Of a stretch of 64,000 bases of DNA, positions 48,842 to 64,000 are shown piece after piece. The DNA comes from Solirubrobacter deserti (lineage in GTDB: Bacteria > Actinomycetota > Thermoleophilia > Solirubrobacterales > Solirubrobacteraceae). Below the pieces are notes generated by a model. The model did no database searches. It was not told where the DNA came from and worked only from the letters and a program-made list of their open reading frames with translations. The translations under genes and the position numbers were made by a program. The DNA lies in assembly GCF_027587175.1 (NCBI RefSeq), contig NZ_JAPCID010000008.1, positions 1-64,000 of the forward strand. Reading direction: 5' to 3'. Numbering within the stretch: the stretch's first letter is position 1; each line of letters opens with the position of its first letter.

Positions 48842-49510
48842 TCAGTTCGAGAGCTTGACGCCACGCCCGGGCGGACGCCGGTAACCCGTCGCCCGTTGCA
48901 CGCTCGACGGGCGCCACTTCGCGCCGCCGCGCAGGGTCGGCACGCCCTCGGCGTTGAGCCGGTCGGCGATCGCCTGCAGGGTCATCCCGCTCTCGCGCAT
49001 GATCGCGATCCGCTCCTGCAGCTCCGGGATGTCGGCGACCGAGAAACGCCCGCCGTCGCGCAGGCGCGCGTTGGCCAGCGCCACCACCCGGCCGCCCTCC
49101 ACGGACGTGTCCACGGGCGGGTCGAGCGCGATCAGGGTTCGGTGCTCGTGGTCGAACCACGTCAGCAGCGGGCGCAGGTTGAGCGGGTTCGCGGACAGAT
49201 CGTGCAGCCGGGTCAGCACGAGCGCATCCGCCCGGCGGTCGGCCAGCTGCTCGAGCGCCCACACGAGCGACGGACGCCGGTCCTGCCCGTACGGGTCGAC
49301 GTCGTGCACGACGCGGGTCAGGAGCAGCCCACGCTCCGCGCAGCACGCGCGGAGGGCGTGGCTGCGCCGCGCGAGCTCGTCCTCGGCGGGGTGCGTGAGG
49401 CACACATAGCCGATCGCCCTTCGGGATCCGCCATTGCCGTTCGCCAACGCCGCCTCCACGTCCGTCACCAGCCAGGCACAACGCCTACCAGCGGTGTCGT
49501 CATGGATCAA
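48842..49510 (-). CDS. Degenerate serine-recombinase-like protein
   Basis: 222 residues. The resolvase fold is recognisable from AIGYVCLTHPAEDELARRSH, VVHDVDPYGQDRRPSLVWAL and EQLADRRADALVLTRLHDLS, but the catalytic Ser of YxRxS is replaced (YVCLTH) and the arginines of the active site are only partly kept. The C-terminal part (MTLQAIADRLNAEGVPTLRG, GAKWRPSSVQRATG) is the recombinase-type HTH. It is probably a domesticated DNA-binding protein rather than a working recombinase. The start may be TTG 49510 or GTG 49468. Confidence 0.7.
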   Translation of the reverse strand: MIHDDTAGRRCAWLVTDVEAALANGNGGSRRAIGYVCLTHPAEDELARRSHALRACCAERGLLLTRVVHDVDPYGQDRRPSLVWALEQLADRRADALVLTRLHDLSANPLNLRPLLTWFDHEHRTLIALDPPVDTSVEGGRVVALANARLRDGGRFSVADIPELQERIAIMRESGMTLQAIADRLNAEGVPTLRGGAKWRPSSVQRATGYRRPPGRGVKLSN

Positions 49511-49573: not shown

Positions 49574-50677
49574 TCAGGTCGCTGACACACCTGCGTTCCA
49601 GGTGTCGAGCACATGACACTCCGTCCGGGTCGGCGCCTCCCAGCGGTCGAGCATCCGCTCGATCGCCGGCCAGGGCACCGGGTGCGCGCGGTCACGGTTA
49701 CGGCGGGCGAGCTCGTCCGCGGGCGCCTCGACGGCCACGATGGTGACGTGCGCGTGGTAGTCGGCGAGCAGCGCGAGCGTCTGGCCGCGCAGCTGCGCCG
49801 ACAGGTTCGTCGCGTTCCAGATGAACGGCTCACCGGCGCGCAGGTACACGCGTGCCTGCTCGCGCGCGTCCTGGATCAGCCGGCCCTCGCCGGTGGAGTC
49901 GCCGCGCTTGATCCCGCGTTCGCGGCGCAGGTCGTCGAGGGAGATGACGGGCCGGCCGTCCCCGTGGAGCGCAATCCACAGGTCCTTGCCGGAGCCGGGC
50001 AGGCCGGACAGCACCACCACGCGGCTGCGCGTGTCGTCGTAGGCGGCGTACGCGGGGTCGCGGTCGTCGCGGGTGAAGTAGCTGAAGCGCGCGTGGTCGG
50101 ACGCGAACGGGTACGGCGCGTCCAGACAGCCGAGCTCGGCCGCGAACTCGGCGAACAGGTCCACCTCGAGCGCGAGCCCTTCGACGTCGGGCGCGATCCG
50201 CCCGAGCGCGTCCGCGCGGGTGAGCCGGTGCTGGCGATCACAGCCCGCCTCGACCGAGATCTCCAGGCACCGGCGCACGGCGCGGCCGGCGCCCACGAGC
50301 CGGTACGGGGCCATGTGGTGGCGCACCAGCGCGCAGATCCGCTCGCGCGCGTGCGGCTCCACGCCCGCCTCCCACAGCAGCCGGCGCGCGATGATCGCGC
50401 CACGGCGCGCGTGGCCGGGCGCGGTCCAGCGGCCGTCCTGGAAACGCGTCGTGGCCGGCTTGCCGACGTCGTGCAGCACCGCCGCGAGCCACAGCTCCTC
50501 GCGCGTGAGCTCGCTCAGCTGCGCCCAGTCGGGCGCCGCGACCAGCTGCTCGCACACCATCCGCGTGTGCGCGAGCACGTCGCCCTCACCGTGGTAGAGC
50601 GGGTTCTGCGGCGTCTCGGCCATCGCCGCCAGCCACGGGGCGTCTTCGGCCCCCAGCTCCGCGCCCACGGCGATCAC
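49574..50677 (-). CDS. HD-Pnk-like nucleic-acid end-healing enzyme
   Basis: 367 residues. The N-terminal HD phosphohydrolase has H37, H69-D70 (AAVLHDVGKPATT), H89, H120-H121 and D156. The C-terminal P-loop kinase has Walker A LSGLPGSGKDLWIA (K231; Asp replaces the usual Ser/Thr) and the conserved Asp pair ISLDDLRRERG, followed by NATNLSAQLRGQTLAL. This order matches HD-Pnk enzymes, which remove 2',3'-cyclic or 2'/3'-phosphates and phosphorylate 5'-OH ends. GTG 50677 overlaps the ligase stop codon (GTGA). Confidence 0.87.
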   Translation of the reverse strand: MIAVGAELGAEDAPWLAAMAETPQNPLYHGEGDVLAHTRMVCEQLVAAPDWAQLSELTREELWLAAVLHDVGKPATTRFQDGRWTAPGHARRGAIIARRLLWEAGVEPHARERICALVRHHMAPYRLVGAGRAVRRCLEISVEAGCDRQHRLTRADALGRIAPDVEGLALEVDLFAEFAAELGCLDAPYPFASDHARFSYFTRDDRDPAYAAYDDTRSRVVVLSGLPGSGKDLWIALHGDGRPVISLDDLRRERGIKRGDSTGEGRLIQDAREQARVYLRAGEPFIWNATNLSAQLRGQTLALLADYHAHVTIVAVEAPADELARRNRDRAHPVPWPAIERMLDRWEAPTRTECHVLDTWNAGVSAT

Positions 50678-51315
50678 GACGCCAGCCCGTTCGGCACGAC
50701 CGCCCCGCTCATCCAGTGCTGGTCGGTCTTGACATGGTCGGCGCGCACGAGCTTGCCGACCGCGCCCAGGTGCTCGTCGCGCCCGAAGGCGCTCGCCCAG
50801 CGCACCACCACGCCCTCGCGCTCGGGCCCGTACGCCGACGCCCCGCCGAGCAGCGACAGGACTCGAACCCGGTCGAACTCGCCCCGGAACAGCAGCGGCA
50901 CGAGATCGACGCCGAGCCGGTGCGCCCACGCCGCGGTGTCGTCCCACGACAGGCACACGTCGTCCGCGTCATAGACCGCGAACAGCTGGAAGTAGGACGG
51001 CAGCGCGTCGTAGGCGATCGAGTGGCGCCCGTAGGTGTTCTCGCCGCACACGCGCCAGCCGTCGGGCAGCGCGTGGGCGATCCGCCCGGCCAGCGCACGC
51101 ACCCACGTGCGCGTCTGGTGGTAGCCGGAGGAGACGCTGCGGGCGTGCGTGTACCCGTCGGCGTAGATGGACGTGTTCTCGCCATCGAGCTTCTCGGTCA
51201 CCACGACCTCGCGGCCCTCGAAGGAGCCGTAGTCCGCGTAGGCGTGATCGCCGTCCGCGCCGCGGTTCGGGCTGTCCGGCAGATGCCAGGTGCGTGGGTA
51301 CTTGACGCGCTCCAC
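50674..51315 (-). CDS. ATP-dependent RNA ligase (Rnl-type)
   Basis: 213 residues of the nucleotidyltransferase fold. Motif I is VVVTEKLDGENTSIYADG with adenylated Lys K42; later motifs are VCGENTYGRHSIAY (III-like), REGVVVRWASAF (IV) and KLVRADHVKTDQHW (V). The enzyme would seal ends healed by the coupled HD-Pnk. There is no OB domain or long C-terminal domain, as in small stand-alone RNA ligases. GTG 51315 lies 8 bases after TACAGT. The cassette lacks RtcB or Hen1, so substrate (tRNA, rRNA or DNA) is open. Confidence 0.87.
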   Translation of the reverse strand: MERVKYPRTWHLPDSPNRGADGDHAYADYGSFEGREVVVTEKLDGENTSIYADGYTHARSVSSGYHQTRTWVRALAGRIAHALPDGWRVCGENTYGRHSIAYDALPSYFQLFAVYDADDVCLSWDDTAAWAHRLGVDLVPLLFRGEFDRVRVLSLLGGASAYGPEREGVVVRWASAFGRDEHLGAVGKLVRADHVKTDQHWMSGAVVPNGLAS

Positions 51316-52290: not shown

Positions 52291-52338
52291 TCCGCATACC
52301 ACCTCGGAAGTGGCTGTCACAGCGAGCATCGCTCGACT

Positions 52339-52344
52339 TAGGAT
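52339..52344 (+). promoter_or_regulatory. -10 element (TAGGAT) of the protease-propeller-GH114 operon
   Basis: TAGGAT plus 7 bases leads to ATG 52352. Confidence 0.55.
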
Positions 52345-52351
52345 CGCGCCG

Positions 52352-53137
52352 ATGGACCGGCTCGTGGTTCCGACAGCCGCTGTGGTATGCGCCGCGCTGG
52401 CGGGTTGTGGCGACGAGCGCCAGGGCCCGGCCGCCCCGGCGCCGCCGGCGCAGCGGCTCGACCTGGGCGTCGTGGGCGTGTCGGCGCGTGTGGGCGGCGA
52501 GGAGCAGCTCGGCTCGGGGTTCGTGGTCGACGCGGATCGCGGGCTGGTGGCGACCACCGCCCACGCCGTGTGGGGCGCGCGCTCGCTCAAGCTCGCGACC
52601 GGCTTCGGCGTGCTGCACGGGCGGATCGTGGCCCGAGCGCCGTGCGACGACCTCGCGTTGCTCGAGGTCCACCCGCGCATCCCGGGCCTTGCGGCGCTCG
52701 CGAGCGCGCCGGCCGGCTCGCCCGCCGGCGACGGCCTGCTGCGGTCCGTCGGCCGGCGCGCGGCCGGCGTGGGCTCGGGCCTGGCGACCATCCCCGTGCG
52801 AGCGGACTCCGCCGGGCGGCTGGACTCGCCACTGGTGCCCGAGGTGTCCGGCGGGCCCGTCGTCGACGCGGCCGGGCGGCTGGTCGGCATGGCGCGTGCC
52901 GAGCTCGCCGGCGCGCCGGCCACCGCCGTGCGGTGGGCGCGGATCAAGGCGCGCATGGGCGAACTGAGGCCGGGGCCACGGCGGGTCTTCGTCGGCTGGG
53001 CGGAGCAGTACCGGTGCGTGAGCCGCCAGCACGCGCGCGCTCGCGCCGCGCACCCGGGTTTCCGGCCCGAGGACGCTCGGTTGAACGCCGCCGTCGCGCC
53101 CACGCGGCTTCCCGGCACGGAGAGCGTCGATCCGTGA
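52352..53137 (+). CDS. Trypsin-fold serine protease-like lipoprotein
   Basis: 261 residues: a lipobox (AAVVCAALAGCGD), then a chymotrypsin fold with H71 (VATTAHAVWG), D99 or D100 (APCDDLALLE) and S166 (EVSGGPVVD). The usual GNSGGP reads EVSGGP, losing the Gly-Asn, so the oxyanion hole may be impaired though the triad is present. The C-terminal extension (RRVFVGWAEQYRCVSRQH) is unusual. It is followed by a propeller gene and a GH114-like gene, so it may process or scaffold matrix proteins. The ATG is 7 bases after TAGGAT. Confidence 0.8.
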   Translation: MDRLVVPTAAVVCAALAGCGDERQGPAAPAPPAQRLDLGVVGVSARVGGEEQLGSGFVVDADRGLVATTAHAVWGARSLKLATGFGVLHGRIVARAPCDDLALLEVHPRIPGLAALASAPAGSPAGDGLLRSVGRRAAGVGSGLATIPVRADSAGRLDSPLVPEVSGGPVVDAAGRLVGMARAELAGAPATAVRWARIKARMGELRPGPRRVFVGWAEQYRCVSRQHARARAAHPGFRPEDARLNAAVAPTRLPGTESVDP

Positions 53138-54117
53138 TGTCGGTGCTGACGGCGCCTCGCGACCCGACGCGCCCGCTGTCGCGCAAGACGATGGCGGCGT
53201 TCGCGGCGGTGATGCTGGTCCTGCTGCTCGCGCCCGCCGCCGTGGTGATCCTGCTGCGCGAGCCGGCGGTCGTGTCCGACGACCGCCGGCTCGCGGCCGG
53301 CCGCTTGCCCACCGACGTCGCGGTCGAGGGCTCGACCGTGTGGGTCGTCAGCGGCCGCGACGACCGGGTCGTGGCCCTGGACGTCCGCGATGTGGAAGGG
53401 GACCCCACGATCCACCGAGCAGGCTCCTCGCCGCTGCGCGTCGCCGTCGGTGGCGGCTCGGTGTGGACGGCGAACGCCGGCGACGACAGCGTCACCCGCA
53501 TCGATCCTCTCGTGCCCGGCAGCGGGCGCCGGATCGCCATCCGCGCGCCGGCCGTGGACGTCGCGGTGAGCGCCGAGGGCACGTGGGTGACGAACGGGCT
53601 CGCCGGCACGGTGACGCGCGTGGACCCGGTCGGCAACCGCGTCCTCGGGACCCCGGTGCGGACCGGCAGCTTCCCGGCGGCGCTCGCGGTCGGCGCCGGT
53701 TCGGTGTGGGTCGTGAACGCGGGGGACGGCACCGTCGCGCGCATCGATCCCCGCGAGGACGTGGTGCTGGGACGCCGCATCCCCGTCGGCCGGGATCCGC
53801 AGGACATCGCGGTCGGGCACGGCTCGGTGTGGGTGGCCAACCGCGGCGACGGTACCGTGACGCGGCTGTCCGCGCGCACGGGGCGTCCGGAGGGCGCCAT
53901 CCCCGTGGGCGGGGCGCCTGGGGCGCTGGCCGTGACGGCCGAGGGCGTGCTCGTCCTCGACACCCGCGACGGCACGGTGCGGGCGATCGACCCGAGCGGG
54001 CGGACCCGCCGTGTGACCCGGATCGAAGGCTTCCCGACGGGGCTGGCGGTCGGCGCCGGCAGCGCGTGGGTGGTCGACGCGCGCAGCGGCACGGTGATCC
54101 GGCTGCGCCCGCGGTGA
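53137..54117 (+). CDS. Membrane-anchored beta-propeller (YVTN/Vgb-like)
   Basis: 326 residues. One N-terminal membrane helix (AAFAAVMLVLLLAPAAVVIL) anchors an extracytoplasmic propeller of seven or so blades with recurring GSVWV(A/V)N-GDGTV-RIDP patterns (GSVWTANAGDDSVTRIDP, GSVWVVNAGDGTVARIDP, GSVWVANRGDGTVTRLSA). Such propellers bind ligands or protein partners. It overlaps both the protease gene (by 1 base) and the GH114 gene (by 4), and has a counterpart in the minus-strand operon at 56662-58125. Confidence 0.85.
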   Translation: MSVLTAPRDPTRPLSRKTMAAFAAVMLVLLLAPAAVVILLREPAVVSDDRRLAAGRLPTDVAVEGSTVWVVSGRDDRVVALDVRDVEGDPTIHRAGSSPLRVAVGGGSVWTANAGDDSVTRIDPLVPGSGRRIAIRAPAVDVAVSAEGTWVTNGLAGTVTRVDPVGNRVLGTPVRTGSFPAALAVGAGSVWVVNAGDGTVARIDPREDVVLGRRIPVGRDPQDIAVGHGSVWVANRGDGTVTRLSARTGRPEGAIPVGGAPGALAVTAEGVLVLDTRDGTVRAIDPSGRTRRVTRIEGFPTGLAVGAGSAWVVDARSGTVIRLRPR

Positions 54118-54845
54118 TCGCGTTGATCGCCGCGGTGGCGCTCGCCGTTCCGTGGGCCCCGCCGCCGACGAGCACCTTCCAGTGGCAGCTCAGCGGCCGG
54201 CTCGACCTGTCCGTGCGTGCGGACCTCTACGACGTCGACCTGTTCGAGACCTCGGCCGCCGACGTCGCGCGCATCCACGCGATGGGCGCGCGGGCCGCGT
54301 GCTACTTCAGCGCGGGCACGCACGAGCCGGGGCGCCCGGACTCGAAGGCCTTCCCCCGAAGCGTGATCGGCCAGCGGCTCGCGGACTGGCCGCGCGAACG
54401 CTGGCTCGACGTGCGCCGGTTGAGCGTCCTGCGGCCGATCATGCGGCGGCGGCTGAACCTGTGCGCCGAGAAGGGCTTCGACGCGGTCGAGCCCGACAAC
54501 GTGGACGGGTATGCCAACGACTCCGGGTTCGCCCTGCGCGGGCGCCATCAGCTGCGCTTCAACCGGTGGCTCGCGCGGGCCGCGCACGCTCGCGGGCTCT
54601 CCATCGCTCTCAAGAACGACCTGGAGCAGGTGCGCGCGCTCGAGCCGTGGTACGACTGGGCGCTCAGCGAGGAGTGCTTCGCGTACCGTGAGTGCGCGCG
54701 GTTGAAGCCGTTCGCGGACGCGGGCAAGGCGGTCTTCGTCGTCGAGTACGCGGACGGCGGGTTCTGCCCCGCCGCCCGCGACCTCGGGTTCATGGCGCAA
54801 CGGAAGCGACTGGCGCTCGACGCGTGGCGGGAGCCATGCTGGTGA
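54114..54845 (+). CDS. GH114-like endo-alpha-1,4-polygalactosaminidase
   Basis: 243 residues from GTG 54114 (GTGA overlap). A weak signal or anchor (IALIAAVALAVPWAP) precedes a TIM barrel whose landmarks are LYDVDLFETSAADVARIHAM, CYFSAGTHEPGRPDS, KGFDAVEPDNVDGYANDSGF (acidic residues E126, D128 and D131), and the late SIALKNDLEQ and AVFVVEYADGGF. GH114 enzymes cleave partially deacetylated galactosamine polymers such as Pel or fungal galactosaminogalactan. Next to a PelF-type locus, this strongly suggests an amino-sugar exopolysaccharide as substrate. Confidence 0.85.
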   Translation: MIALIAAVALAVPWAPPPTSTFQWQLSGRLDLSVRADLYDVDLFETSAADVARIHAMGARAACYFSAGTHEPGRPDSKAFPRSVIGQRLADWPRERWLDVRRLSVLRPIMRRRLNLCAEKGFDAVEPDNVDGYANDSGFALRGRHQLRFNRWLARAAHARGLSIALKNDLEQVRALEPWYDWALSEECFAYRECARLKPFADAGKAVFVVEYADGGFCPAARDLGFMAQRKRLALDAWREPCW

Positions 54846-55740
54846 GCGTGCGGTCCAGCCCGTCGGTGAACGCGACGCGGGCCGCCCAGCCCAGCGCCGC
54901 GGCTGCGCGCGACGGGTCCAGGCAGGAGCGTCGGACCTCGCCCGCGCGCTCGGGCGCGTGACGCACGCGCAGGCCGAGTTCCTGCGCCACCGCCAGCACG
55001 GTCGTCTCGCGCCCGGTGGCGACGTTCACGCAGCCGGTCACCGGGCGCTCGCCGGCGGCCATGAACGCGCGCACGACGTCGTCGACGTACAGGAAGTCAC
55101 GCGTCTGGCCGCCGTCGCCGAACACGGTGACGGGGTGCCCGGCGCGGGCGGCAGCGCAGAACATCGCGACCACGCCGGCCTCGCCCGCGCCGTTCTGGCG
55201 CGGGCCGTAGACGTTGGACAGGCGCAGGCTGAGTGTCGAGAGGCCGAACAGCGTGCGGTAGAGGTCCAGGTAGCTCTCGGCGGCCGCCTTGGAGGCGGCG
55301 TAGGGGGACGCGGGACGGACCTCGGCGCTCTCGGGCGTCGGCAGGACGTCCGCCTCGCCGTAGATGGCCCCGCCGGTCGAGGCCAGCACGAAGCGCCGGA
55401 CGCCGTGGCGCTGGGCGGCCTGCAGCAGCGTCAGCGTGCCGATCAGGTTGACGACGGCGTCGTGGATGGGGTCGGCGACGGCGTGGCGGACGTCGATCTG
55501 GGCGGCGAGGTGGTAGATCGTGTCGGGCCGCTCGGCGGTGAGCGCGCGGGCGACGGCGTGTGGGTCGGTCACGTTCCCCGGTGTCAGCCGCACGCCGTGG
55601 TTGAGCGCGCCGAACAGGTTCTCCCAGCGACCGGTCGAGAGGTCGTCCAGGACGGTGACGCGGCGGCCGTCTTCGACGAGCGCGTTGACGAGGTGGGAGC
55701 CGATGAACCCGGCTCCGCCGGTGACGAGGGCGCTGCGCAT
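54790..55740 (-). CDS. NAD-dependent sugar epimerase (GalE-like)
   Basis: 316-residue extended short-chain dehydrogenase/reductase: NAD-binding GGAGFIG (8-14), catalytic Tyr147 and Lys151 (SPYAASKAAAESYL), with STGGAIYGEA before them and FLYVDDVVRAF later. It fits UDP-hexose 4-epimerases; in Pel loci a comparable enzyme (PelX) makes UDP-GalNAc from UDP-GlcNAc. It is the last gene of the minus-strand operon. The final 56 bases overlap the convergent GH114-like gene. Confidence 0.88.
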   Translation of the reverse strand: MRSALVTGGAGFIGSHLVNALVEDGRRVTVLDDLSTGRWENLFGALNHGVRLTPGNVTDPHAVARALTAERPDTIYHLAAQIDVRHAVADPIHDAVVNLIGTLTLLQAAQRHGVRRFVLASTGGAIYGEADVLPTPESAEVRPASPYAASKAAAESYLDLYRTLFGLSTLSLRLSNVYGPRQNGAGEAGVVAMFCAAARAGHPVTVFGDGGQTRDFLYVDDVVRAFMAAGERPVTGCVNVATGRETTVLAVAQELGLRVRHAPERAGEVRRSCLDPSRAAAALGWAARVAFTDGLDRTLTSMAPATRRAPVASVAP

Positions 55741-55742
55741 GA

Positions 55743-56639
55743 TCACGGGTACACGCAGTAGTGGGTGGGCGAGCCCGCGGCGACAGCGCCGGTCGTGCCC
55801 GCGTTGACGTACTGCCACTGGTGGTCGGCGCGCCCGCCGACCCAATAGACGATCTCGTACACGCCGACGGCGTAGCGTCCGGAGCCGGGCGGCACGCTGA
55901 TCGGGCCGAGCGTCCAGGGAACCGGCGTCACGCTCGCGTCCGGGTGGAACTGGGCGATGCCGGTGCGCGTCGCCGTCCAGGCGTTCCAGCGTCCGCGGTT
56001 CTCGCCCAGGGTGCCGAACCAGTGCCAGCCGGTGGCGGCCGTGTACACCGCGACCCAGCCGCGCGTGGACACGGGCGTCGCGGCCTTGGTGGTGAAGTCC
56101 GGCTCGACGAGGAACCCGGGGTCGCATTGGAGGTGGCCGTCCGTCCAGAAGCCCTTCACGGCCGCGGCGCGTCTGCGGGAGGTGAGCGTGAAGTGCAGCC
56201 GGGCGCGGTCGATCACGGCCGTGGCCGCGACGCTCGAGCGACGTGCGATCCGGCGCGCGCTGCGGGTCGAGACCGTCAGGCGCGCGGTGGCGCGCTGGTT
56301 CACGCAGCGGAAGCGGGTGGCGGCGATTGCGCGTGGCGCGATGCGCGGGGCGCGGACCTGCAGCGCGCCGTCCCGCTGGCAGGCGAAGCGGAGGGTGAAG
56401 CGGCGGTCGTCGAGGCGGGCGTTCGTGTCGCGCAGCAGTCCCGGGCCGGTGGCCGGCGGGACGTTCATCGGGACGCCGGGCGGAACGAAGGACAGCGCCG
56501 TGCCCGGTGAGGACGGCAGGTTCGCCCCGCTTCCGGGCGGCGGCCCCGGGGGCCCGGGCGGCGCCTGAGCCGCGGCGCGCGCGGGGTGCGCGGCGGTGGC
56601 CGTCACCGCGAGTCCGATCAGCAGCGGTATGCGGCGCAT
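55743..56639 (-). CDS. Secreted protein of unknown function in the polysaccharide operon
   Basis: 298 residues with a signal peptide (MRRIPLLIGLAVTATAAHPA), a Gly-Pro-rich stretch (PPGPPGPPPGSGANLPSSPG), a beta-rich region containing FTLRFACQRDGALQVRAPRI, and a C-terminal domain with aromatic motifs (GWHWFGTLGENRGRWNAWTA, YAVGVYEIVYWVGGRADHQW). No catalytic signature is evident. The C-terminus may be a carbohydrate-contacting or matrix domain. It starts 22 bases after the propeller gene and ends 2 bases before the epimerase gene. I do not recognise a family. Confidence 0.65.
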   Translation of the reverse strand: MRRIPLLIGLAVTATAAHPARAAAQAPPGPPGPPPGSGANLPSSPGTALSFVPPGVPMNVPPATGPGLLRDTNARLDDRRFTLRFACQRDGALQVRAPRIAPRAIAATRFRCVNQRATARLTVSTRSARRIARRSSVAATAVIDRARLHFTLTSRRRAAAVKGFWTDGHLQCDPGFLVEPDFTTKAATPVSTRGWVAVYTAATGWHWFGTLGENRGRWNAWTATRTGIAQFHPDASVTPVPWTLGPISVPPGSGRYAVGVYEIVYWVGGRADHQWQYVNAGTTGAVAAGSPTHYCVYP

Positions 56640-56661
56640 GCGATCCCCCTTCCTGGGGTTG

Positions 56662-58125
56662 TCAACGGTCAACGCGGATCACCTCGTGCTCGCCGGCCGC
56701 GATCCACACGTGCCGGTCGTCGAGGGCGAGGGCGGTCGGCGGCGCGGGCAGAGGCGTGCGGCGGCGGAGCTGCCCCGTGAGGCCGTCGAGGTGGAGAAGA
56801 GCGCGGTCGCCGCGGCACAGGACGAACACCTCGCCGCGGCCGGCCGCGACGGCCAGTGGTGCGGCGCACAGCGGTGCGGGCAGGTCGGCCACGCCACGAT
56901 CGACGTCGATCCGCTGCAGCGTCCCGGCGGCCGAGTCGACCGCCCAGGCGTGCTCCCCGTCCAGCGCGACGTCCACCGGGGCACCGCCGAGCGCGATCGG
57001 TGGTCCTTCGACGCGTCTGCGGGCCGCGGACAACCGCACGAGCGTCCCTGTGCTGGCGTCCACGGCCACCACACGACGCTCGTCCGCCGCCAGCGCCAGC
57101 GGGCGCGAGCCGACGTGCAGCGTCCGCCACGGGCCTCGGTCCGGGCGCACCCGGATCGTCCCGTCCGCGGAGCCGGCCGCCCACACGGCCCCGGCGGCGA
57201 CCGCGACGTCGGTCACGTCCGGGCCCCGGCTCAACACCCGGGGAGCGCCGGTGCCGTCGGCCCTGGCGCGCACGATCGCGCCGCTGCGCGTATCGGCGAC
57301 CCATGCCCACCGCGGCCCGACGGCGACCCGGGCGGGCGTGCCGCCCGTCCTGAGCGCCGGGGCCGCGGGACGACCCGTCGCCGGGTCGAGGATCCAGACA
57401 GCCCCGGCACCCGGTCCCGCGACCCACACCCGGCCGCCGGCAACCGCGATCCCGGTCGGTTGAGCCGGCACGCGGAACGTGGTCGCGGCCGCGGCGGTGC
57501 GCGGCTCGGACCGGACGAGCCAGAGCGCGCTGGCGGCGAGCCCGACGGCGATCGCGACCAGCGCCGCCCACCGGGCCACGGCCAGGCGGCGCGAGCGAGT
57601 CGTGCCGGCGCCGGAGCGGCGGGAGCCGGGCGCGGGACGCGCCGGTGCGTCTTGCGGCGTCGTGGCGGGCCGGCGCGAGTCGGGCTGCGCGGCGGCCGGT
57701 GCTTCCCACGAGCTCGCTGTGCCGCCCGGCGTGCCGTTGTGGCGACGCCACTCCGGTGGGCGGCGCCACGGCCGCGGTGGCTCGCCGAGCGGCGGCGCCA
57801 GGTCGGCCGGCGCGACGTCCCAGCGGGTGGACGTCCCGTCGCGGCGGACGCGCGCGCTCGCGTCCGCGGCGGCCGCGCGTGGCGGCGCTTCGTCGTCGCA
57901 TGGGCCGCCCATTGCGGCCCAGGGGGCGTCGTCGCGCGGGCCCGCCGGCGCGAGCCAACGCTCGTCACCGCTCGCGTGGGTCGGCGGCTCGTCGTGCGGC
58001 AGTCCTGCGCTGACGGTGGTGCGTATACGCGCGATCCGCTCGAGCTGCTTCGCGTACTCCGCTTCGTACAGGTCGGGGTGGCGGTCGTGCGGGCGGCGGG
58101 CCCAGAGGTTCGGCTCGCGGGTCAT
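56662..58125 (-). CDS. Membrane-anchored beta-propeller with long cytoplasmic tail
   Basis: 487 residues. About 190 charged, Pro/Arg-rich and probably disordered cytoplasmic residues (LWARRPHDRHPDLYEAEYAK at the start) precede one membrane helix (VARWAALVAIAVGLAASALW). A propeller of repeated GGRVWVAGPGAGAVWILDPA / DGEHAWAVDSAAGTLQRIDV blades follows. It parallels the propeller of the plus-strand operon but adds the long tail, which could contact cytoplasmic synthesis proteins. It overlaps the upstream hydrolase gene by 4 bases (ATGA). Confidence 0.82.
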   Translation of the reverse strand: MTREPNLWARRPHDRHPDLYEAEYAKQLERIARIRTTVSAGLPHDEPPTHASGDERWLAPAGPRDDAPWAAMGGPCDDEAPPRAAAADASARVRRDGTSTRWDVAPADLAPPLGEPPRPWRRPPEWRRHNGTPGGTASSWEAPAAAQPDSRRPATTPQDAPARPAPGSRRSGAGTTRSRRLAVARWAALVAIAVGLAASALWLVRSEPRTAAAATTFRVPAQPTGIAVAGGRVWVAGPGAGAVWILDPATGRPAAPALRTGGTPARVAVGPRWAWVADTRSGAIVRARADGTGAPRVLSRGPDVTDVAVAAGAVWAAGSADGTIRVRPDRGPWRTLHVGSRPLALAADERRVVAVDASTGTLVRLSAARRRVEGPPIALGGAPVDVALDGEHAWAVDSAAGTLQRIDVDRGVADLPAPLCAAPLAVAAGRGEVFVLCRGDRALLHLDGLTGQLRRRTPLPAPPTALALDDRHVWIAAGEHEVIRVDR

Positions 58126-58793
58126 GGGCACGCTCGCGGCCGCGTGACGGTGCCCCACGGGTGGGGCAGGGTGCCGGTGGTCAGGTACGCGTTGGGCGGC
58201 ACGTCGGCAGCCTGCGGTGCCGCGTAGACGAGGTGCGCGGTGCGTTCCGAGTCCAGCCAGGCGGGCGGGTGCCAACGCCGGTAGTCGGCGTAGGAGCCCT
58301 CGAACGTGACGACGACGTCGGCGAGCTCGAAGTAGGCGCGGGCCGGCACCACGCCCGGGTTCAGGACCAGGAAGTCCGCTCCCGCGGCCCGTGCGTCGGC
58401 GGCGAGCGCCCGGTACTGGTCGATGCGGGGTTCGTCGTCCCCCGCCTCGTCGAGGAAGATGCCGTCGATGCCGTACCACGCGCGGTAGCGCCGGACGTCG
58501 CGGGCCACCTCAGCGCGCGGGCGCGCGCCCCAGCGGGTCGCCACGTAGCCCAGGACGCGCGCGCCGTTCGCCTGGGCGGTGGCGATGGCGCGGCGGAAGG
58601 CCGGCTCGGCCTCGGTCCCCGGGCCGCTGGCGGGGTTGACGACGAGCAGCCGCGGAAGCGGCGCGCGTTCTGCGATCCGCAGGAACTCGTCGGCGGACAC
58701 GTAGGCGGGGACGAGCGGCTCCGGGCAGACCGGATCGGGCTGTGCGCCGCAGCCCGCGAGCACCACGGTGGCGAGCACGCCGGCGCGGCTCAT
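58122..58793 (-). CDS. Spherulin-4/GH135-like hydrolase lipoprotein
   Basis: 223 residues: a lipobox (TVVLAGCGAQ), then a TIM barrel with LLVVNPASGPGTEAEPAFRR, RVLGYVATRWGARPRAEVAR, GIDGIFLDEAGDDEPRIDQY (D115-E116, the expected catalytic region) and DFLVLNPGVVPARAYFELAD. This is the spherulin-4 family (PF12138), which includes fungal Sph3 (GH135), a galactosaminogalactan hydrolase. As an anchored hydrolase inside the synthesis operon it resembles the hydrolase half of PelA. It overlaps both neighbours by 4 bases. Confidence 0.85.
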   Translation of the reverse strand: MSRAGVLATVVLAGCGAQPDPVCPEPLVPAYVSADEFLRIAERAPLPRLLVVNPASGPGTEAEPAFRRAIATAQANGARVLGYVATRWGARPRAEVARDVRRYRAWYGIDGIFLDEAGDDEPRIDQYRALAADARAAGADFLVLNPGVVPARAYFELADVVVTFEGSYADYRRWHPPAWLDSERTAHLVYAAPQAADVPPNAYLTTGTLPHPWGTVTRPRACP

Positions 58794-60100
58794 GGGATCC
58801 ACAGGGCCGTGGCCAGCGTGCGAGCCGGCCGGGCGAGCAGGACCAGTGCCGCGGGCGCCATCAGCAGGACCGCCACCGCGCCGCCGGCGGCCAACGCGGC
58901 GCCGTCGAACGGCACCGGGACGGCGAGCTCGGCGGCGACGCCCGCCGCGATGGCCGGTGTCGCCCAGACCGGTCGCCCGAGCGACTCCAGCAGCGCGACG
59001 AGCACGCCGGCGAGCGCGACCACGCCGAAGCCGGCGAGCACGCCCGCCCCGGGACCCGGCGCCACCAGCACGACGGCGAGCGACCCGACCACGGTCGTCA
59101 GCGCGAGCCGCCCGATCGCCCCGGCGAGCGTCCCCACCGAGCGCCGCGCCGAAGGACCCGTCCCGTCGCACGCCGGCACGCCGGACAGCGCCTGCGGGAA
59201 CACGTCGGCGAGCCGCCAGAGCGCGTGCCCCGCCCACAGCCCGCCGACCGCCGACGGCAACAGGGCGAGCGCCGCCGCCGGCCCACCCGCCCACCCCACG
59301 GACGGGTCGCCGACGAGCAGCACCCCGATGCCGACCCCGGCGAGCCCCGCGCCGGCCATCCGGGTCCAGGGCCCGGGCACGACGGCCCGCCGTACGCGGC
59401 GCGCGCGCGGCTCGTCGGCGGCACGCCGCCCGCGCGGGGTGCCGATGGCGCACGCGGCGGCGGCCGTGGCGATCGTCGCGACTGCGGCCACCACGGCGAG
59501 CGCGGGCACGTCCGCGAGCATCACGGGCGTCGCGCCGACGACGACCGCGGCGTACCCCGCGACCCAGCCGCGGCGGAGCAGGATGCTGCCGCTCGTCCAG
59601 GTGACCGTGAGCAGGCCGGCCAGCGCTCCCGCCGAGCCGAGGACCGCGGCCGGGCCGGCCACGAGCGCGACGGCCCCGACGATCAGTGCGGCGCGCCGGT
59701 GGCGCAGACCGTCGAGGCCGGACGGCCGCCCGAGGTGCCGGGCCTGAAGCGCCGAGTGCAGGCCGAGCGCCAGCGGCAGGGCGAGCGTCAGAGCGCGGCC
59801 GACCACGCCGTCGCCGAGCGCCGCCGCGAGCGGCGCGGCCCAAAGGGCGATCGCCGACACGGTCGCGAGCAGGGCCGCTCCCTCGGCGGCCATCCGTGGT
59901 GGGCGGCGCGGCGTCGCCGGCCGCGTACCGCTCAGGGCCGGCGGCGCCGGCGTGCGGGGCATGCAGGCGCTCGCGGTCTCCAGCGCCTGTTGTGCGGGCA
60001 CGCCCGCCCACGCCTCGAGCACGACCGCGGCCTCGAGGGCATCCTGCGGCGGGCGCCCCAGCCGTGCCTCGACCAGCCCGGAGGCGCGCGCGGCCGTCAT
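58790..60100 (-). CDS. Polytopic membrane protein in the PelG position
   Basis: 436 residues. About 70 N-terminal soluble residues (ASGLVEARLGRPPQDALEAA) are followed by roughly 12 hydrophobic helices (GAALLATVSAIALWAAPLAA to VAVLLMAPAALVLLA). PelG, the partner of PelF, is a 12-helix flippase-like protein of about 450 residues, so length, topology and gene order fit, but sequence resemblance is not obvious by eye. ATG 60100 overlaps the PelF stop codon (ATGA). An unrelated exporter remains possible. Confidence 0.6.
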   Translation of the reverse strand: MTAARASGLVEARLGRPPQDALEAAVVLEAWAGVPAQQALETASACMPRTPAPPALSGTRPATPRRPPRMAAEGAALLATVSAIALWAAPLAAALGDGVVGRALTLALPLALGLHSALQARHLGRPSGLDGLRHRRAALIVGAVALVAGPAAVLGSAGALAGLLTVTWTSGSILLRRGWVAGYAAVVVGATPVMLADVPALAVVAAVATIATAAAACAIGTPRGRRAADEPRARRVRRAVVPGPWTRMAGAGLAGVGIGVLLVGDPSVGWAGGPAAALALLPSAVGGLWAGHALWRLADVFPQALSGVPACDGTGPSARRSVGTLAGAIGRLALTTVVGSLAVVLVAPGPGAGVLAGFGVVALAGVLVALLESLGRPVWATPAIAAGVAAELAVPVPFDGAALAAGGAVAVLLMAPAALVLLARPARTLATALWIP

Positions 60101-61599
60101 CACCGCACCGCGTGCAGCCGCGCCCGGTCGCGGGTGAGCGTGTGCAACAGCTCGCGGTAGCCCTCGACGCAGGCGCCTTCGTTGAAGATGCGTCCAAGCC
60201 GGGCGTGCCCACGCAGCCCGAGCCGCCACGCGAGCTCCGGATTGCGAAGGAGCATCACGACCGCGGTCGTGAGCGCGTGGTCGTCCCCGGGGGCGCACAC
60301 GACGCCGCAGCCCTTGACCACGTCGGGCACGCCGCCCACGGCGGTGGACACGACGGGGCGGCCCTGGCTCATCGCCTCGAGCACGGACATCGGAAGCCCT
60401 TCCGAGATGCTCGTCATAAGGACCACGTCGGCCCCTTGCACCACGCCCGTCGGGTCCGTGGTGCGTCCCATGAACGCGAACCGGTCACCGAGACCGAGCC
60501 GCTCGTGCAGCGCCAGGCACGAGCGGCCGTAGGCCTCCTCCCCGGCGGTCGTCGACCCGAAGTGGCGGAAGCGCGCCTCCGGCATGACCCGCACCGTCTC
60601 CGCCGCCACGCGCAGCAGCGTGTAGATGTCCTTGAGCGGATCGATCCGCCCGACCGACACGACGATGCGCTCGCCCGGCGGCGGCGACGGTGGCGGCGGC
60701 TGACGCAGCCCGTTGTAGAGGACGAGGATCTTCGCCGGGTCGATCCCGAGCCCCATCTCCCAGTAGGCGTTCGCGTCGGTGACCGGGCAGATGACGTCCG
60801 CGCCCGCGTACGCGCAGCGCGCGAGCCCGCGCGCCAAGCGCGTGGCGGAGAACCGCGCACCGGGCGAGCCGCCGCTGCGCACGGCCGCGAGGTACGCCTC
60901 CCGCAGGTAGACACCGTGCTCGGTCAACACGATCGGGGTCGCGTGCAGCGCCTTGTGGACCCGCGCCGGGATGGCCGACCAGCCTGCGGCGGTGACGTGG
61001 AGCACGTCCGCGGCGGGGGTCGGCGCGGACGCCGTGCGCGCGACCCAGTACAGCGTCTGGTAGAGCGCGGCGGCCTCCACGAGGTCCAGCCGGGGCGGCG
61101 TCCCCGCCTCCGGGATGCGCTCGGCCAGCACGTCCCGCAGCCCGGCCAGGAACGCGTTCCACCCCCGCCCGGACCGGAACACGCGCCGCACCCCGGCCGG
61201 GTGGTGCCGGCACCACACGCACTCGGCGACCACGGCCTCGGTGTCACCGTGCCACCCCAGCAGCCCTCGGACGAGCGCCCCCGGAAGGTCCCACCGGCAC
61301 GGCCCGCGGCCGCCGCCTCGCGGCCGGCGCTCCGACCACACCTCCAGCGGCCCGATCTCGTGGGCGTGCGGCGGCAGCTCGTACAGGGGCGGGCGCCCGT
61401 CCGCGGCGACGATCGGCAGCACCGCCCAGTCGAATTCGTCGAGCCCCCGGATCAGCAGGTCACACCACGAGCTCACGCCGCCGAGCGCGTACGGGTACGT
61501 GCCCTCCGTGAGCAGCAGGACCCGGGGGCGAGGGCCCGGCGCCGCCGCGCGCGGCGCCGGCGCCGGGGGTGCGGGCTCAAGCGCGGGTGCCGCCGCCAT
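60100..61599 (-). CDS. pelF: PelF-like GT4 glycosyltransferase
   Basis: 499 residues. The diagnostic PelF opening is LLLTEGTYPYALGGVSSWCD, followed by LPIVAADGRPPLYELPPHAH, HVTAAGWSAIPARVHKALHA and TEHGVYLREAYLA. The GT4 donor site is SISEGLPMSVLEAMSQGRPV (the EX7E pair) then GGVPDVVKGCGV. PelF is the cytosolic polymerase that uses UDP-GalNAc/GlcNAc to make Pel. A Pro/Ala-rich tail of about 25 residues precedes the domain. It overlaps the upstream coiled-coil gene by 23 bases. Confidence 0.9.
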   Translation of the reverse strand: MAAAPALEPAPPAPAPRAAAPGPRPRVLLLTEGTYPYALGGVSSWCDLLIRGLDEFDWAVLPIVAADGRPPLYELPPHAHEIGPLEVWSERRPRGGGRGPCRWDLPGALVRGLLGWHGDTEAVVAECVWCRHHPAGVRRVFRSGRGWNAFLAGLRDVLAERIPEAGTPPRLDLVEAAALYQTLYWVARTASAPTPAADVLHVTAAGWSAIPARVHKALHATPIVLTEHGVYLREAYLAAVRSGGSPGARFSATRLARGLARCAYAGADVICPVTDANAYWEMGLGIDPAKILVLYNGLRQPPPPSPPPGERIVVSVGRIDPLKDIYTLLRVAAETVRVMPEARFRHFGSTTAGEEAYGRSCLALHERLGLGDRFAFMGRTTDPTGVVQGADVVLMTSISEGLPMSVLEAMSQGRPVVSTAVGGVPDVVKGCGVVCAPGDDHALTTAVVMLLRNPELAWRLGLRGHARLGRIFNEGACVEGYRELLHTLTRDRARLHAVR

Positions 61600-61957
61600 G
61601 CAGGCTCACCGTGGTGTCCAACGCCTTCAGCCGAGCCTCGAACGACACCATCGCCCGCTCGATCTCCTGGCAGATCTCGAGCAGCGACTCGCGCACGACG
61701 AGCCCTTCGACCAGCACCCGCGTCATCTCATCGGCGAGGCTGGCGTCGTCCAGCGGCGTCTCGGGCAGCGTCCGGGCGCGTCCGAGCAGCGCGGCGATGT
61801 CCGGCGCCTGGTGCGGGGCCGCCTTCAGCCGCGCGTTCTCCTCGCGCAGCAGCGTCAGCTCGGCGCGCAGCGCCCCGAGCGACTCGCCCGCGGCCTCCAG
61901 GGCCTCGAAGTCCGCGCGCCGGCGTCCGAACCGCCGCGGCCGCTCGTCGACGCTCAT
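61577..61957 (-). CDS. Small coiled-coil protein of the polysaccharide operon
   Basis: 126 residues, basic at the start (VDERPRRFGRRRADFEALEA), then a heptad-type helix (LGALRAELTLLREENARLKA) and a second helical stretch (RESLLEICQEIERAMVSFEA). No membrane segment. It lies between the putative deacetylase and PelF genes, with overlap on both sides, so it may scaffold the cytosolic synthase or occupy the place of a missing Pel component. I recognise no family. Confidence 0.7.
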   Translation of the reverse strand: MSVDERPRRFGRRRADFEALEAAGESLGALRAELTLLREENARLKAAPHQAPDIAALLGRARTLPETPLDDASLADEMTRVLVEGLVVRESLLEICQEIERAMVSFEARLKALDTTVSLHGGGTRA

Positions 61958-64000
61958 CCGCTCACGACCCGGAAGGCGAGGCGGCGCGGGGCGGTCCGCT
62001 CACGGCCGGCGACGGCCGTGACGACGAGCCGGTGGCGCTGCGCCCGCAGCCGTCGCTCTCCGAAGCGCCCGCGGAAGCGGACGACGCTCGTTCCCGGCGA
62101 CCCCGCTCGCTCGATCCGCCCGACGCGTACCCAGCCGGTCCGCGTGCGCCGCTGGAAGGTGAGCCGGACCGTCGCGGCGCGGTTGAGCCGCCACGTGATC
62201 CGCGTGCCGTCGAGGCGCGACCCGAGCCGTGCGCGGCGGTGTGCGACCGCGAAGCGCCGCGGGCTCATGCTCAGGCGAGTCAGGCGCAGCCGCGCGGGTG
62301 CGGCGACCGGCCGGGACGTGCCGGAAGGGGGCGTCGAGCCGGAAGGCGGCGCAGAGCCGGGAGCGGGCGTCGAGCCGGAAGGCGGCGCCGGACGCGCGGG
62401 GGGTTCGTTGTCACGTCCGGCGCGTTCCTCCCGCGCCGCTGGCGCCCGCGGCGCGATCGTCCGGGTCGGCGCGGAGAGCGCCTGGCTGACGGACGACACC
62501 CAGTTGCCGGCGAGCACCGCCACGCGCACGGTGCGGCCCTCGTCGGCGTCTTCCAGCGTGTACGCGGCCTCGGTCGCGCCCGCCACGTTCACGCACGCGG
62601 TGACACACCGCTGCCACTGGTATGAGAGCTCCGGAGCTCCCGTCCACGCGCCCGCTTCGGCTTCCAGCCGCTCACCCACCCGCGGCTCGCCGCGCACGGC
62701 CGGGGCCCGTGTCGGCGCGGGTTCCGCGGGCGCGAAGCTGACCTGGGCGCCCGGGTCGACCGACACCCAGCGCGAGCGCTGGCCGCCGTAGCTCTCCCCG
62801 CCCTCGACGCCCGTCAGCGGCACGGTCACCGCGGACGAGCCGGTGTTGCGTACGTATACGCGCCCGTCCTGCAGCCACGCGCGGATGGCGCCCTCGTCGC
62901 GCGCCCACGCCTCCTGGCGCGCGAGCGTCGCCGCGATCTGCGTCGCCCCGAGCTGCACCAGGGGCGCCGCGGCGCGATCGAACGCCGCCTCGTAGCGGGC
63001 CACCAGCGCGTCGATGACCGGGTACAGGACGCCGCCCTGGTCGGGGTGGACGTCAGGCAGCGCCGGGTTGTGATCGGCGAGGTTGCTCTGGTGGAAGTAG
63101 TGCGGCCGCGCGTCGTTGCCGGTGACGTGCCGGAACATCACCTGCGTCTCGCTGCTCACGTACTCCGCCCAGGTGGCGGCCGCGGCGCGGCACGTCGTCA
63201 CGCCCGCCACCGGGACGCAGGCGCCGCCCGGCGGAGCCACGTAGATCCAGTTGTACTCGTCGAGCTGCTGACCCTGGCGCGAGGCGTTGTAGTAGACGTT
63301 GCTGGGATAGCGCGGGACGGCGCGCACGGCGCCCATGACGAAGGAAGCGCCGGCCGGGAGCAGCGGGCTCGTGATGACCGTCGGCGTCGTGGGATAGCCC
63401 TTCGACGCGTCGGACGCGATCGTCGACACGCCACCGGCCGTGACACCGGCGAGGAACGCGGGGTTCTGCCCGTAGGGCGCGAGCGCCGCGCCGTTGACCG
63501 CCGGCGGCGCCGCGGCCGTGCCCGCCGCGCCCGTGTCCGTGAGCGTGTGGGTGACCGGCACGACGCCGTCGTCGGTCGCCGCCGTCGCGCTGCGAGGCAT
63601 CGACGCCACGCGGGTCCAGTCGGTGGTGCCCGTCACGCGCCGGTAGAGGTCGAACCCGATCGCGTGGCAGACGGCGTCGAAGTGCACGGTCACCGACGAC
63701 GCCGCGGGCACCGTCAGCTCCTCCTCGTACGGAACCGTCTCACCGGCCGGTGAGCGCGCGGTCAACGCGTAGTCGTAGGTGCCGGCGGCGAGCGTGCCGG
63801 TGCCGACGGTCGTCTCGTCGATGGACGGCGGGTCGATCGTCCCGGGGTTGCCCGGGCGCGCGTTGGCGAGTCCGGAGTGCTCGCCCGTCACCAGCTCGGT
63901 GGGGTCGAGGGGGAGCCCGTTCGCCCGCGCGAAGGCCACGTTGTCGCGGATCTGGTCACGGATGAACGAGCTCGTCGAGCAGTCCAGGTTCGCGTGCGTG
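61954..64000 (-). CDS. Putative exopolysaccharide deacetylase with Ig-like and beta C-terminal domains, 5' end cut by window edge
   Basis: About 681 residues are visible; the frame continues past the right edge. The first part (ANLDCSTSSFIRDQIRDNVA, LPLDPTELVTGEHSGLANAR) resembles the late motifs of large extracellular polysaccharide deacetylases, possibly CE18/Agd3-like. It is followed by a fibronectin-like insert, a region with HYFHQSNLADHNPALPDVHP, an Ig-like repeat (LSYQWQRCVTACVNVAGATE), a Gly/Pro/Ser repeat linker and a C-terminal beta domain. Genes of this operon make deacetylation likely, but the catalytic centre is mostly outside the window. Confidence 0.6.
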   Translation of the reverse strand, partial: THANLDCSTSSFIRDQIRDNVAFARANGLPLDPTELVTGEHSGLANARPGNPGTIDPPSIDETTVGTGTLAAGTYDYALTARSPAGETVPYEEELTVPAASSVTVHFDAVCHAIGFDLYRRVTGTTDWTRVASMPRSATAATDDGVVPVTHTLTDTGAAGTAAAPPAVNGAALAPYGQNPAFLAGVTAGGVSTIASDASKGYPTTPTVITSPLLPAGASFVMGAVRAVPRYPSNVYYNASRQGQQLDEYNWIYVAPPGGACVPVAGVTTCRAAAATWAEYVSSETQVMFRHVTGNDARPHYFHQSNLADHNPALPDVHPDQGGVLYPVIDALVARYEAAFDRAAAPLVQLGATQIAATLARQEAWARDEGAIRAWLQDGRVYVRNTGSSAVTVPLTGVEGGESYGGQRSRWVSVDPGAQVSFAPAEPAPTRAPAVRGEPRVGERLEAEAGAWTGAPELSYQWQRCVTACVNVAGATEAAYTLEDADEGRTVRVAVLAGNWVSSVSQALSAPTRTIAPRAPAAREERAGRDNEPPARPAPPSGSTPAPGSAPPSGSTPPSGTSRPVAAPARLRLTRLSMSPRRFAVAHRRARLGSRLDGTRITWRLNRAATVRLTFQRRTRTGWVRVGRIERAGSPGTSVVRFRGRFGERRLRAQRHRLVVTAVAGRERTAPRRLAFRVVSG

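What the first reader, a model, noticed from the sequence alone, without database searches (positions are those of the whole stretch)
54114..64000. Divergent Pel/galactosaminogalactan-type exopolysaccharide locus in an actinobacterium-like genome
A PelF-type glycosyltransferase is embedded in an operon with a 12-TM protein in the PelG position, a GalE-like epimerase, a spherulin-4 hydrolase and a probable deacetylase, with a GH114-like hydrolase on the opposing strand. PelF, GH114 and spherulin-4 (Sph3/GH135) families are each known from amino-sugar polymers. The overlapping starts and stops show co-expression of most minus-strand genes. The combination differs from both the Pseudomonas pel operon and the Bacillus pel-like operon.
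Basis: partly seen in the sequence, partly recalled or inferred. Interest (0 to 1): 0.88.

Follow-up and report, generated by a model that had tools for sequence, protein, structure and literature searches.

The report
Solirubrobacter GAG/Pel-like exopolysaccharide operon
A soil bacterium (Solirubrobacter) carries a compact operon that almost certainly makes, deacetylates and trims a sticky galactosamine polymer like the one moulds (Aspergillus) and Pseudomonas use for biofilms; this kind of bacterial operon was reported in outline in 2020, but this one has a very divergent exporter and previously unnoted conserved accessory genes.

Summary
The window is from a Solirubrobacter (100% identical to Solirubrobacter sp. 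CPCC 204708). Extending past 64000 completes an eight-gene, start/stop-overlapping minus-strand operon: agd3 (CE18+CBM87, runs to 65115), a 126-aa coiled-coil protein, pelF, a MOP-fold exporter, sph3 (GH135), a beta-propeller, a secreted 309-aa protein and galE; ega3 (GH114) converges on it. Catalytic residues of Agd3, Sph3, Ega3 and PelF are present. PelF, Sph3, Ega3 and Agd3 families each have a single match in the 7.1-Mb genome, all here. The exporter fails the PelG model; intermediate homologues and an AlphaFold model make it a divergent PelG-like MOP transporter. PelD is absent. So it is not a standard pel operon but a member of the bacterial agd3 operons that Bamford et al. (2020) reported, with all fungal GAG-cluster functions (synthase split into GT plus exporter). 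New is a Solirubrobacterales sub-type: its own PelF clade and exporter family (9/9 testable genomes also have pelF), a conserved coiled-coil protein, a domain inserted into CE18, and a recombinase-like protein lacking its catalytic serine just upstream. The polymer itself is inferred, not shown.

The parts
61954..64000 (-). agd3: secreted/anchored CBM87 + CE18 polysaccharide de-N-acetylase; only its C-terminal 681 of 1053 aa are in the window, gene runs to contig position 65115
   Evidence: PF25115 38.9 bits (cut-off 27.6), PF25116 29.1 bits (cut-off 27.6); PDB 6nwz Agd3 E 3.5e-12; D293, D294, H370, H374, H675 invariant in 20 of 20 homologues, R602 in 19; about 130-residue insert at 420-550 inside the CE domain, in about half of the homologues
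61577..61957 (-). cc126: short coiled-coil cytoplasmic protein between agd3 and pelF, function unknown, conserved in this sub-type
   Evidence: no significant Pfam/NCBIfam hit; homologues in related loci at 29-89% identity, invariant N41 A42 L44 R89 L92
60100..61599 (-). pelF: GT4 glycosyltransferase, probable polymerase of alpha-1,4-GalNAc
   Evidence: NF038011 127.8 bits, cut-off 100; PF11997 1.9e-31; EX7E motif E400/E408; tree
58790..60103 (-). tm12: MOP-fold membrane exporter in the PelG position, with a short N-terminal helical domain
   Evidence: no PF16933 match at E<=10; AlphaFold2 pLDDT 78.5, pTM 0.77; best structural matches are MATE/WzxE/MurJ, Z 12-21 over 310-345 residues; linked to PelG through intermediates
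58122..58802 (-). sph3: GH135 spherulin-4 endo-alpha-1,4-N-acetylgalactosaminidase homologue, probable lipoprotein (LAGC lipobox)
   Evidence: PF12138 1.1e-33; PDB 5c5g E 4.2e-16 with D166/E167/E222 equivalents D118, E119, E168
56662..58125 (-). beta-propeller protein with one membrane segment, accessory
   Evidence: weak DUF6923; in-operon homologue in L017 only besides the identical L013
55743..56672 (-). sec309: secreted protein of unknown fold, conserved at related loci
   Evidence: no Pfam/NCBIfam hit; homologues in L015, L017, L050, L052, L053, 37-60% identity with four invariant Cys
54790..55758 (-). galE: UDP-hexose 4-epimerase family, probable supply of UDP-GalNAc/UDP-Gal
   Evidence: PF01370 2.5e-61; closest solved structures are UDP-glucose 4-epimerases, E 2.7e-73
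54114..54845 (+). ega3: GH114 endo-alpha-1,4-galactosaminidase homologue, secreted, convergent to the operon
   Evidence: PF03537 1.2e-75; Ega3 6oj1 E 3.5e-47 with D189/E247 equivalents D127/E185; GTG start overlaps the stop of the upstream propeller gene

Best explanation
This is a biosynthetic locus for a partially de-N-acetylated, alpha-1,4-linked N-acetylgalactosamine-rich exopolysaccharide (GAG/Pel-like) in a Gram-positive-type soil actinobacterium. GalE makes UDP-GalNAc (and UDP-Gal); cytoplasmic PelF polymerises it; the 12-helix MOP-fold protein takes the chain across the membrane; outside, Agd3 (CBM87+CE18) removes acetyl groups to make a cationic, adhesive polymer; the lipoprotein Sph3 trims acetylated stretches and the secreted Ega3 trims or releases deacetylated stretches. 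The small coiled-coil protein may tether or regulate PelF in place of PelD/PelE. Shown by computation: family membership, catalytic residues, the exporter's predicted fold, overlapping gene structure, conservation of the cluster. Inferred: the polymer, the direction of each step, the roles of the coiled-coil, propeller and 309-aa proteins.
For: PelF, Agd3, GH135, GH114 and GalE family hits; catalytic residues conserved against Sph3, Ega3 and Agd3; overlapping operon; single-copy clustering; conserved neighbourhood in Solirubrobacter, Conexibacter and Acidimicrobiia contigs and class members; the exporter family co-occurs with PelF in 9 of 10 genomes, Fisher p 4e-12 (relatedness of genomes not corrected for), the tenth cut by a contig end; MOP fold; the same kind of gene set on named Streptomyces, Kocuria and Deinococcus plasmids. 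In Aspergillus the corresponding enzymes make and process GAG (PMC4817252, PMC7229062).
Against: No polymer, lectin or enzyme data for any Solirubrobacter. The exporter fails the PelG profile and direct comparison with PelG is negative. Bacterial CE18 similarity to Agd3 is low. PelD is missing, so a synthase complex like that of Pel cannot be assumed. Sph3, galE, sec309 and the propeller are absent from part of the related loci.
Confidence: 0.83

Rival explanations
1. The locus makes a different amino-sugar or mixed polymer (for example a GlcNAc- or galactose-rich capsule or wall polymer) with enzymes that diverged from the GAG/Pel set.
For: Substrate of PelF and GalE cannot be read from sequence; PelF of this clade is far from PelF of pelG operons; the exporter is a different family.
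Against: Three independent processing enzymes (CE18, GH135, GH114), all characterised in Aspergillus on alpha-1,4-GalNAc/GalN chains, co-occur with intact catalytic residues.
Confidence: 0.13
2. A foraging cluster: the bacterium degrades GAG of fungi or Pel of other bacteria rather than making it.
For: Two hydrolases and a deacetylase are predicted to be secreted; Solirubrobacter lives in soil with moulds (general knowledge).
Against: A PelF polymerase, an epimerase and a MOP exporter overlap in the same operon as the deacetylase, and the pelF-exporter pair is the most constant part of the related loci; no sugar importer or catabolic enzyme was seen among the operon genes.
Confidence: 0.03
3. 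A standard Gram-positive pel operon (pelDEA_DAFG).
For: PelF, galE, a deacetylase and a PelA_H-like hydrolase are also found at Gram-positive pel loci (PMC7112168).
Against: No PelG profile match at E<=10, no PelD match over cut-off, and the deacetylase is CE18 with CBM87.
Confidence: 0.01

Closest known systems
Bacterial agd3-containing exopolysaccharide operons (Bamford et al. 2020, PMC7229062)
   Same: CE18/CBM87 deacetylase, cytoplasmic glycosyltransferase, multi-spanning membrane protein, GH114, and spherulin-4 as in some Actinobacteria.
   Different: The paper's main text does not mention Solirubrobacter or PelG; this sub-type has its own PelF clade and exporter family, a conserved coiled-coil gene, a secreted 309-aa gene, and a domain inserted into CE18. 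Whether the paper's supplement lists this sub-type could not be checked.
Aspergillus fumigatus GAG cluster (uge3, gtb3, agd3, ega3, sph3; PMC4817252)
   Same: Homologues of Uge3-type epimerase, Agd3, Ega3 and Sph3 in one cluster.
   Different: The single transmembrane synthase Gtb3 is replaced by separate PelF and MOP-fold proteins; operonic; extra genes.
Gram-positive pel operon pelDEA_DAFG of Bacillus cereus (PMC7112168, PMC13254593)
   Same: PelF polymerase, membrane partner next to it, epimerase, external deacetylase of similar three-domain plan, hydrolase.
   Different: No PelD, PelG below detection, deacetylase is CE18, hydrolases are GH114 and GH135.

Membership tests
Bacterial agd3 operons (Bamford 2020) | CE18 deacetylase with CBM87 | tested here: met
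   PF25115 38.9 and PF25116 29.1 bits, both over cut-off; catalytic motifs CM1, CM2, CM4 invariant and CM3 arginine in 19 of 20
Bacterial agd3 operons (Bamford 2020) | cytoplasmic glycosyltransferase plus multi-spanning membrane protein | tested here: met
   PelF and 12-helix MOP model
Bacterial agd3 operons (Bamford 2020) | GH114 in or next to the operon; spherulin-4 in some Actinobacteria | tested here: met
Pel operon | PelF | tested here: met
   NF038011 127.8 bits over cut-off 100
Pel operon | PelG (PF16933) | tested here: not met
   no match at E<=10 in six genomes of this type, none for the protein itself; distant kinship only through intermediates
Pel operon | PelD c-di-GMP receptor | tested here: not met
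   no PF16963 match over cut-off in the genome; best 18.5 bits on another contig
Pel operon | PelE | not tested
   no PelE model was run; no operon protein has a significant TPR hit
Fungal GAG cluster | Uge3, Agd3, Ega3 and Sph3 homologues together | tested here: met
Fungal GAG cluster | Gtb3, one transmembrane synthase | not tested
   no Gtb3 sequence at hand; here synthase and exporter are two genes
MOP flippase superfamily | 12-helix MATE/MurJ/Wzx fold | tested here: met
   AlphaFold2 model; MATE, WzxE and MurJ take the top ranks, Z 20.8 to about 12, then a drop to about 8; Foldseek E only 0.01
GAG/Pel polymer | alpha-1,4 GalNAc/GalN polymer made | not testable with these tools
   needs chemistry

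The most novel reading that the evidence does not exclude
Solirubrobacterales use a distinct GAG-type synthase: PelF paired with a separate MOP-exporter family carrying an extra N-terminal helical domain, held or regulated by a conserved coiled-coil protein instead of PelD/PelE, and controlled by a membrane-anchored, catalytically dead recombinase-like regulator; systems of this kind, some on plasmids between transposase genes, could be the source of the fungal GAG cluster.
Probability: 0.25. Interest if true: 0.75.

Novelty: new variant of a known kind. Interest (0 to 1): 0.52.

Why it matters
It shows that the enzyme set of the fungal biofilm polymer GAG (epimerase, polymerase, exporter, CE18, GH114, GH135) exists as one compact operon in free-living soil actinobacteria, with a polymerase of the Pel type. 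This ties Pel and GAG into one system, gives a place to test how such a polymer is made without PelD/PelG of the known kind, supplies new GH114/GH135/CE18 enzymes (bacterial GH114 enzymes have been hard to produce, PMC12054363), and bears on the proposed bacterial origin of the fungal GAG cluster.

Tried and rejected
Direct PelG assignment: PF16933 gave nothing and profile comparison with two PelG was negative (E 0.53); four unrelated membrane proteins gave the same null result, so the positive links (exporter to B-type E 2.6e-5, or 2e-9 with a larger set; B-type to PelG 2.2e-6) stand out. Fold of the 309-aa protein: AlphaFold2 with three sequences gave pLDDT 49.8, unusable. Fold search against viral proteins: nothing useful. 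PelD elsewhere in the genome: only sub-threshold matches. Linkage of the upstream GGDEF-EAL gene: kept in L013 and L014 only, so not claimed as part. Rooting the PelF tree with other GT4 enzymes of the same genome: long branches, position of the outgroup unsure. Fungal origin by phylogeny: not possible, no fungal sequences beyond PDB chains.
Full report
Identity of the window. The window is C107:1-64000 of a 7.1-Mb genome; the contig is 194 kb and continues beyond the window. A contig of Solirubrobacter sp. CPCC 204708 carries the locus with 100% protein identity over all genes compared, so the source is that species or one very near.

The locus. On the minus strand eight genes run agd3 (61954-65115), cc126 (61577-61957), pelF (60100-61599), tm12 (58790-60103), sph3 (58122-58802), propeller (56662-58125), sec309 (55743-56672), galE (54790-55758); each overlaps the next at start and stop. 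ega3 (54114-54845, plus strand) converges on galE and its GTG start overlaps the stop of a second propeller gene. agd3 is cut by the window end, and its catalytic D293, D294 and H370 lie outside.

Enzymes. PelF: NF038011 127.8 bits against a cut-off of 100, PF11997 1.9e-31. Agd3: PF25115 and PF25116 over cut-off, PDB 6nwz E 3.5e-12. GH135: PF12138 1.1e-33, Aspergillus Sph3 structure 5c5g 4.2e-16. GH114: PF03537 1.2e-75, A. fumigatus Ega3 3.5e-47. Epimerase: closest to solved UDP-glucose 4-epimerases. The residues reported as catalytic (Ega3 D189/E247; Sph3 D166/E167/E222; Agd3 D377, R613, H668) have equivalents: Ega3 D127/E185, Sph3 D118/E119/E168, Agd3 D293/D294, H370/H374, R602, H675; the matching of numbering was done by hand on the HMMER alignments, and R602 as the CM3 arginine is inferred from conservation and position. 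Among 20 Agd3 homologues five of these six Agd3 residues are invariant and R602 is kept in 19. A stretch of about 130 residues (420-550) is inserted inside the CE domain and is present in about half of the homologues.

Not chance. PF12138, PF11997 and PF03537 each match once in the genome, all in this locus; the Agd3_CE search also finds only this place, below its cut-off in a frame-wise search. In 399 genomes of the class, 21 have PF11997; in 396 of the phylum, 6 have Agd3_CE.

The exporter. PF16933 (PelG) finds nothing at E<=10 in this and five related genomes, nor in the protein and its homologues, although it hits a true PelG next to pelF and agd3 in another actinobacterial lineage at 9e-139 (L069). 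An AlphaFold2 model (pLDDT 78.5, pTM 0.77) is matched best by MATE, WzxE and MurJ structures, Z 20.8 down to about 12 over 310-345 residues, after which Z drops to about 8; Foldseek E is only 0.01. By profile comparison the exporter family links to a second pelF-adjacent family (E 2e-9; 2.6e-5 in a smaller set), one member of which is itself over the PelG cut-off (L063), and that set links to PelG (2.2e-6); four unrelated membrane proteins give nothing. So it is best called a divergent PelG-like MOP transporter, with an N-terminal helical stretch that the PelG proteins looked at here lack. In the class the exporter profile gives 10 clear genomes; 9 also carry pelF (Fisher p 4e-12, not corrected for relatedness), and in the tenth the contig ends inside the gene.

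A sub-type. In a PelF tree the 13 proteins next to this exporter form one group (96/88; 98% of bootstrap trees), apart from PelF of pelG operons and from those of Streptomyces, Kocuria and Deinococcus; the root is unsure. Within this group pelF and the exporter are always neighbours; agd3 is found at every locus except the short L019/L066 contig; ega3 and cc126 are found in most, and sph3, sec309, galE and the propeller in some. Solirubrobacter taibaiensis has two copies; two other genomes of the genus have none, so the locus is patchy.

What was known. Bamford et al. 2020 (PMC7229062) found agd3 homologues in 45 bacterial species; of 35 in their tree 30 lie in or near operons encoding carbohydrate-active enzymes; all the operons have a cytoplasmic GT and a multi-spanning membrane protein, GH114 is highly consistent, spherulin-4 occurs in some Actinobacteria, and transfer of the cluster from bacteria to fungi was discussed. 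The main text does not mention Solirubrobacter, Conexibacter, Kocuria or PelG. Whitfield et al. 2020 (PMC7112168) described Gram-positive pelDEA_DAFG loci. PelA_DA of B. cereus has an Agd3-like three-domain plan (PMC13254593). Named plasmids of Streptomyces californicus, Kocuria rosea and Deinococcus ficus carry the same kind of cluster, with an unnamed membrane protein next to pelF (the agd3-like genes of the first two match the Agd3 models only below cut-off, but match this Agd3 by tblastn). So the kind is known; the sub-type, the exporter's relation to PelG and the accessory genes are what this work adds.

Mechanism. Shown: families, catalytic residues, predicted fold, gene overlap and conservation. 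Inferred from Aspergillus GAG and Pel: GalE supplies UDP-GalNAc, PelF polymerises, the MOP protein exports, Agd3 deacetylates outside, Sph3 and Ega3 trim. cc126 could stand in for PelD/PelE as a tether, a guess from its place and its conservation. The held library shows no chemistry of such a polymer for any Solirubrobacter.

Verdict.

Noticed in passing
65153-66118 (L003:5153-6118, -), second copy window 48842-49510 (-): Serine-recombinase-like proteins with the catalytic Ser and Arg positions of gamma-delta resolvase replaced, a conserved C-terminal helix-turn-helix-like part and, in the 65-kb copy, N-terminal hydrophobic helices; only two found in the whole genome, both near the cluster in the same direction. 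One lies 37 bp upstream of agd3, and homologues sit near agd3 in L014, L015 and L017. Possibly a regulator rather than a recombinase.
   Followed up: partly
66178-68925 (L003:6178-8925, -): GAF-GGDEF-EAL protein 59 bp upstream of the recombinase-like gene, same direction; could be co-transcribed and link the locus to c-di-GMP, but the linkage is kept only in L013 and L014.
   Followed up: partly
L081 4508-13576 (Kocuria rosea plasmid NZ_CP126484.1): A five-gene version (agd3-like, pelF, membrane protein, spherulin-4, GH114) lies between two copies of the same transposase (WP_284563886.1, opposite strands) on a mobilizable plasmid: looks like a composite transposon carrying a GAG-type locus.
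   Followed up: no
window 52298-54117 (+): Trypsin-like protease gene followed by an NHL/Vgb-like beta-propeller gene that overlaps ega3; the propeller is about 30% identical to the one inside the operon; the same order with sco1 is kept in L017.
   Followed up: partly
L069, L070 (another actinobacterial family): agd3, pelF, a true PelG (PF16933 9e-139 in L069) and spherulin-4 together: a bridge between Pel and GAG-type loci.
   Followed up: partly
window 50677-51315 (-): Stand-alone RNA ligase family protein (PF09414 3.9e-31).
   Followed up: no
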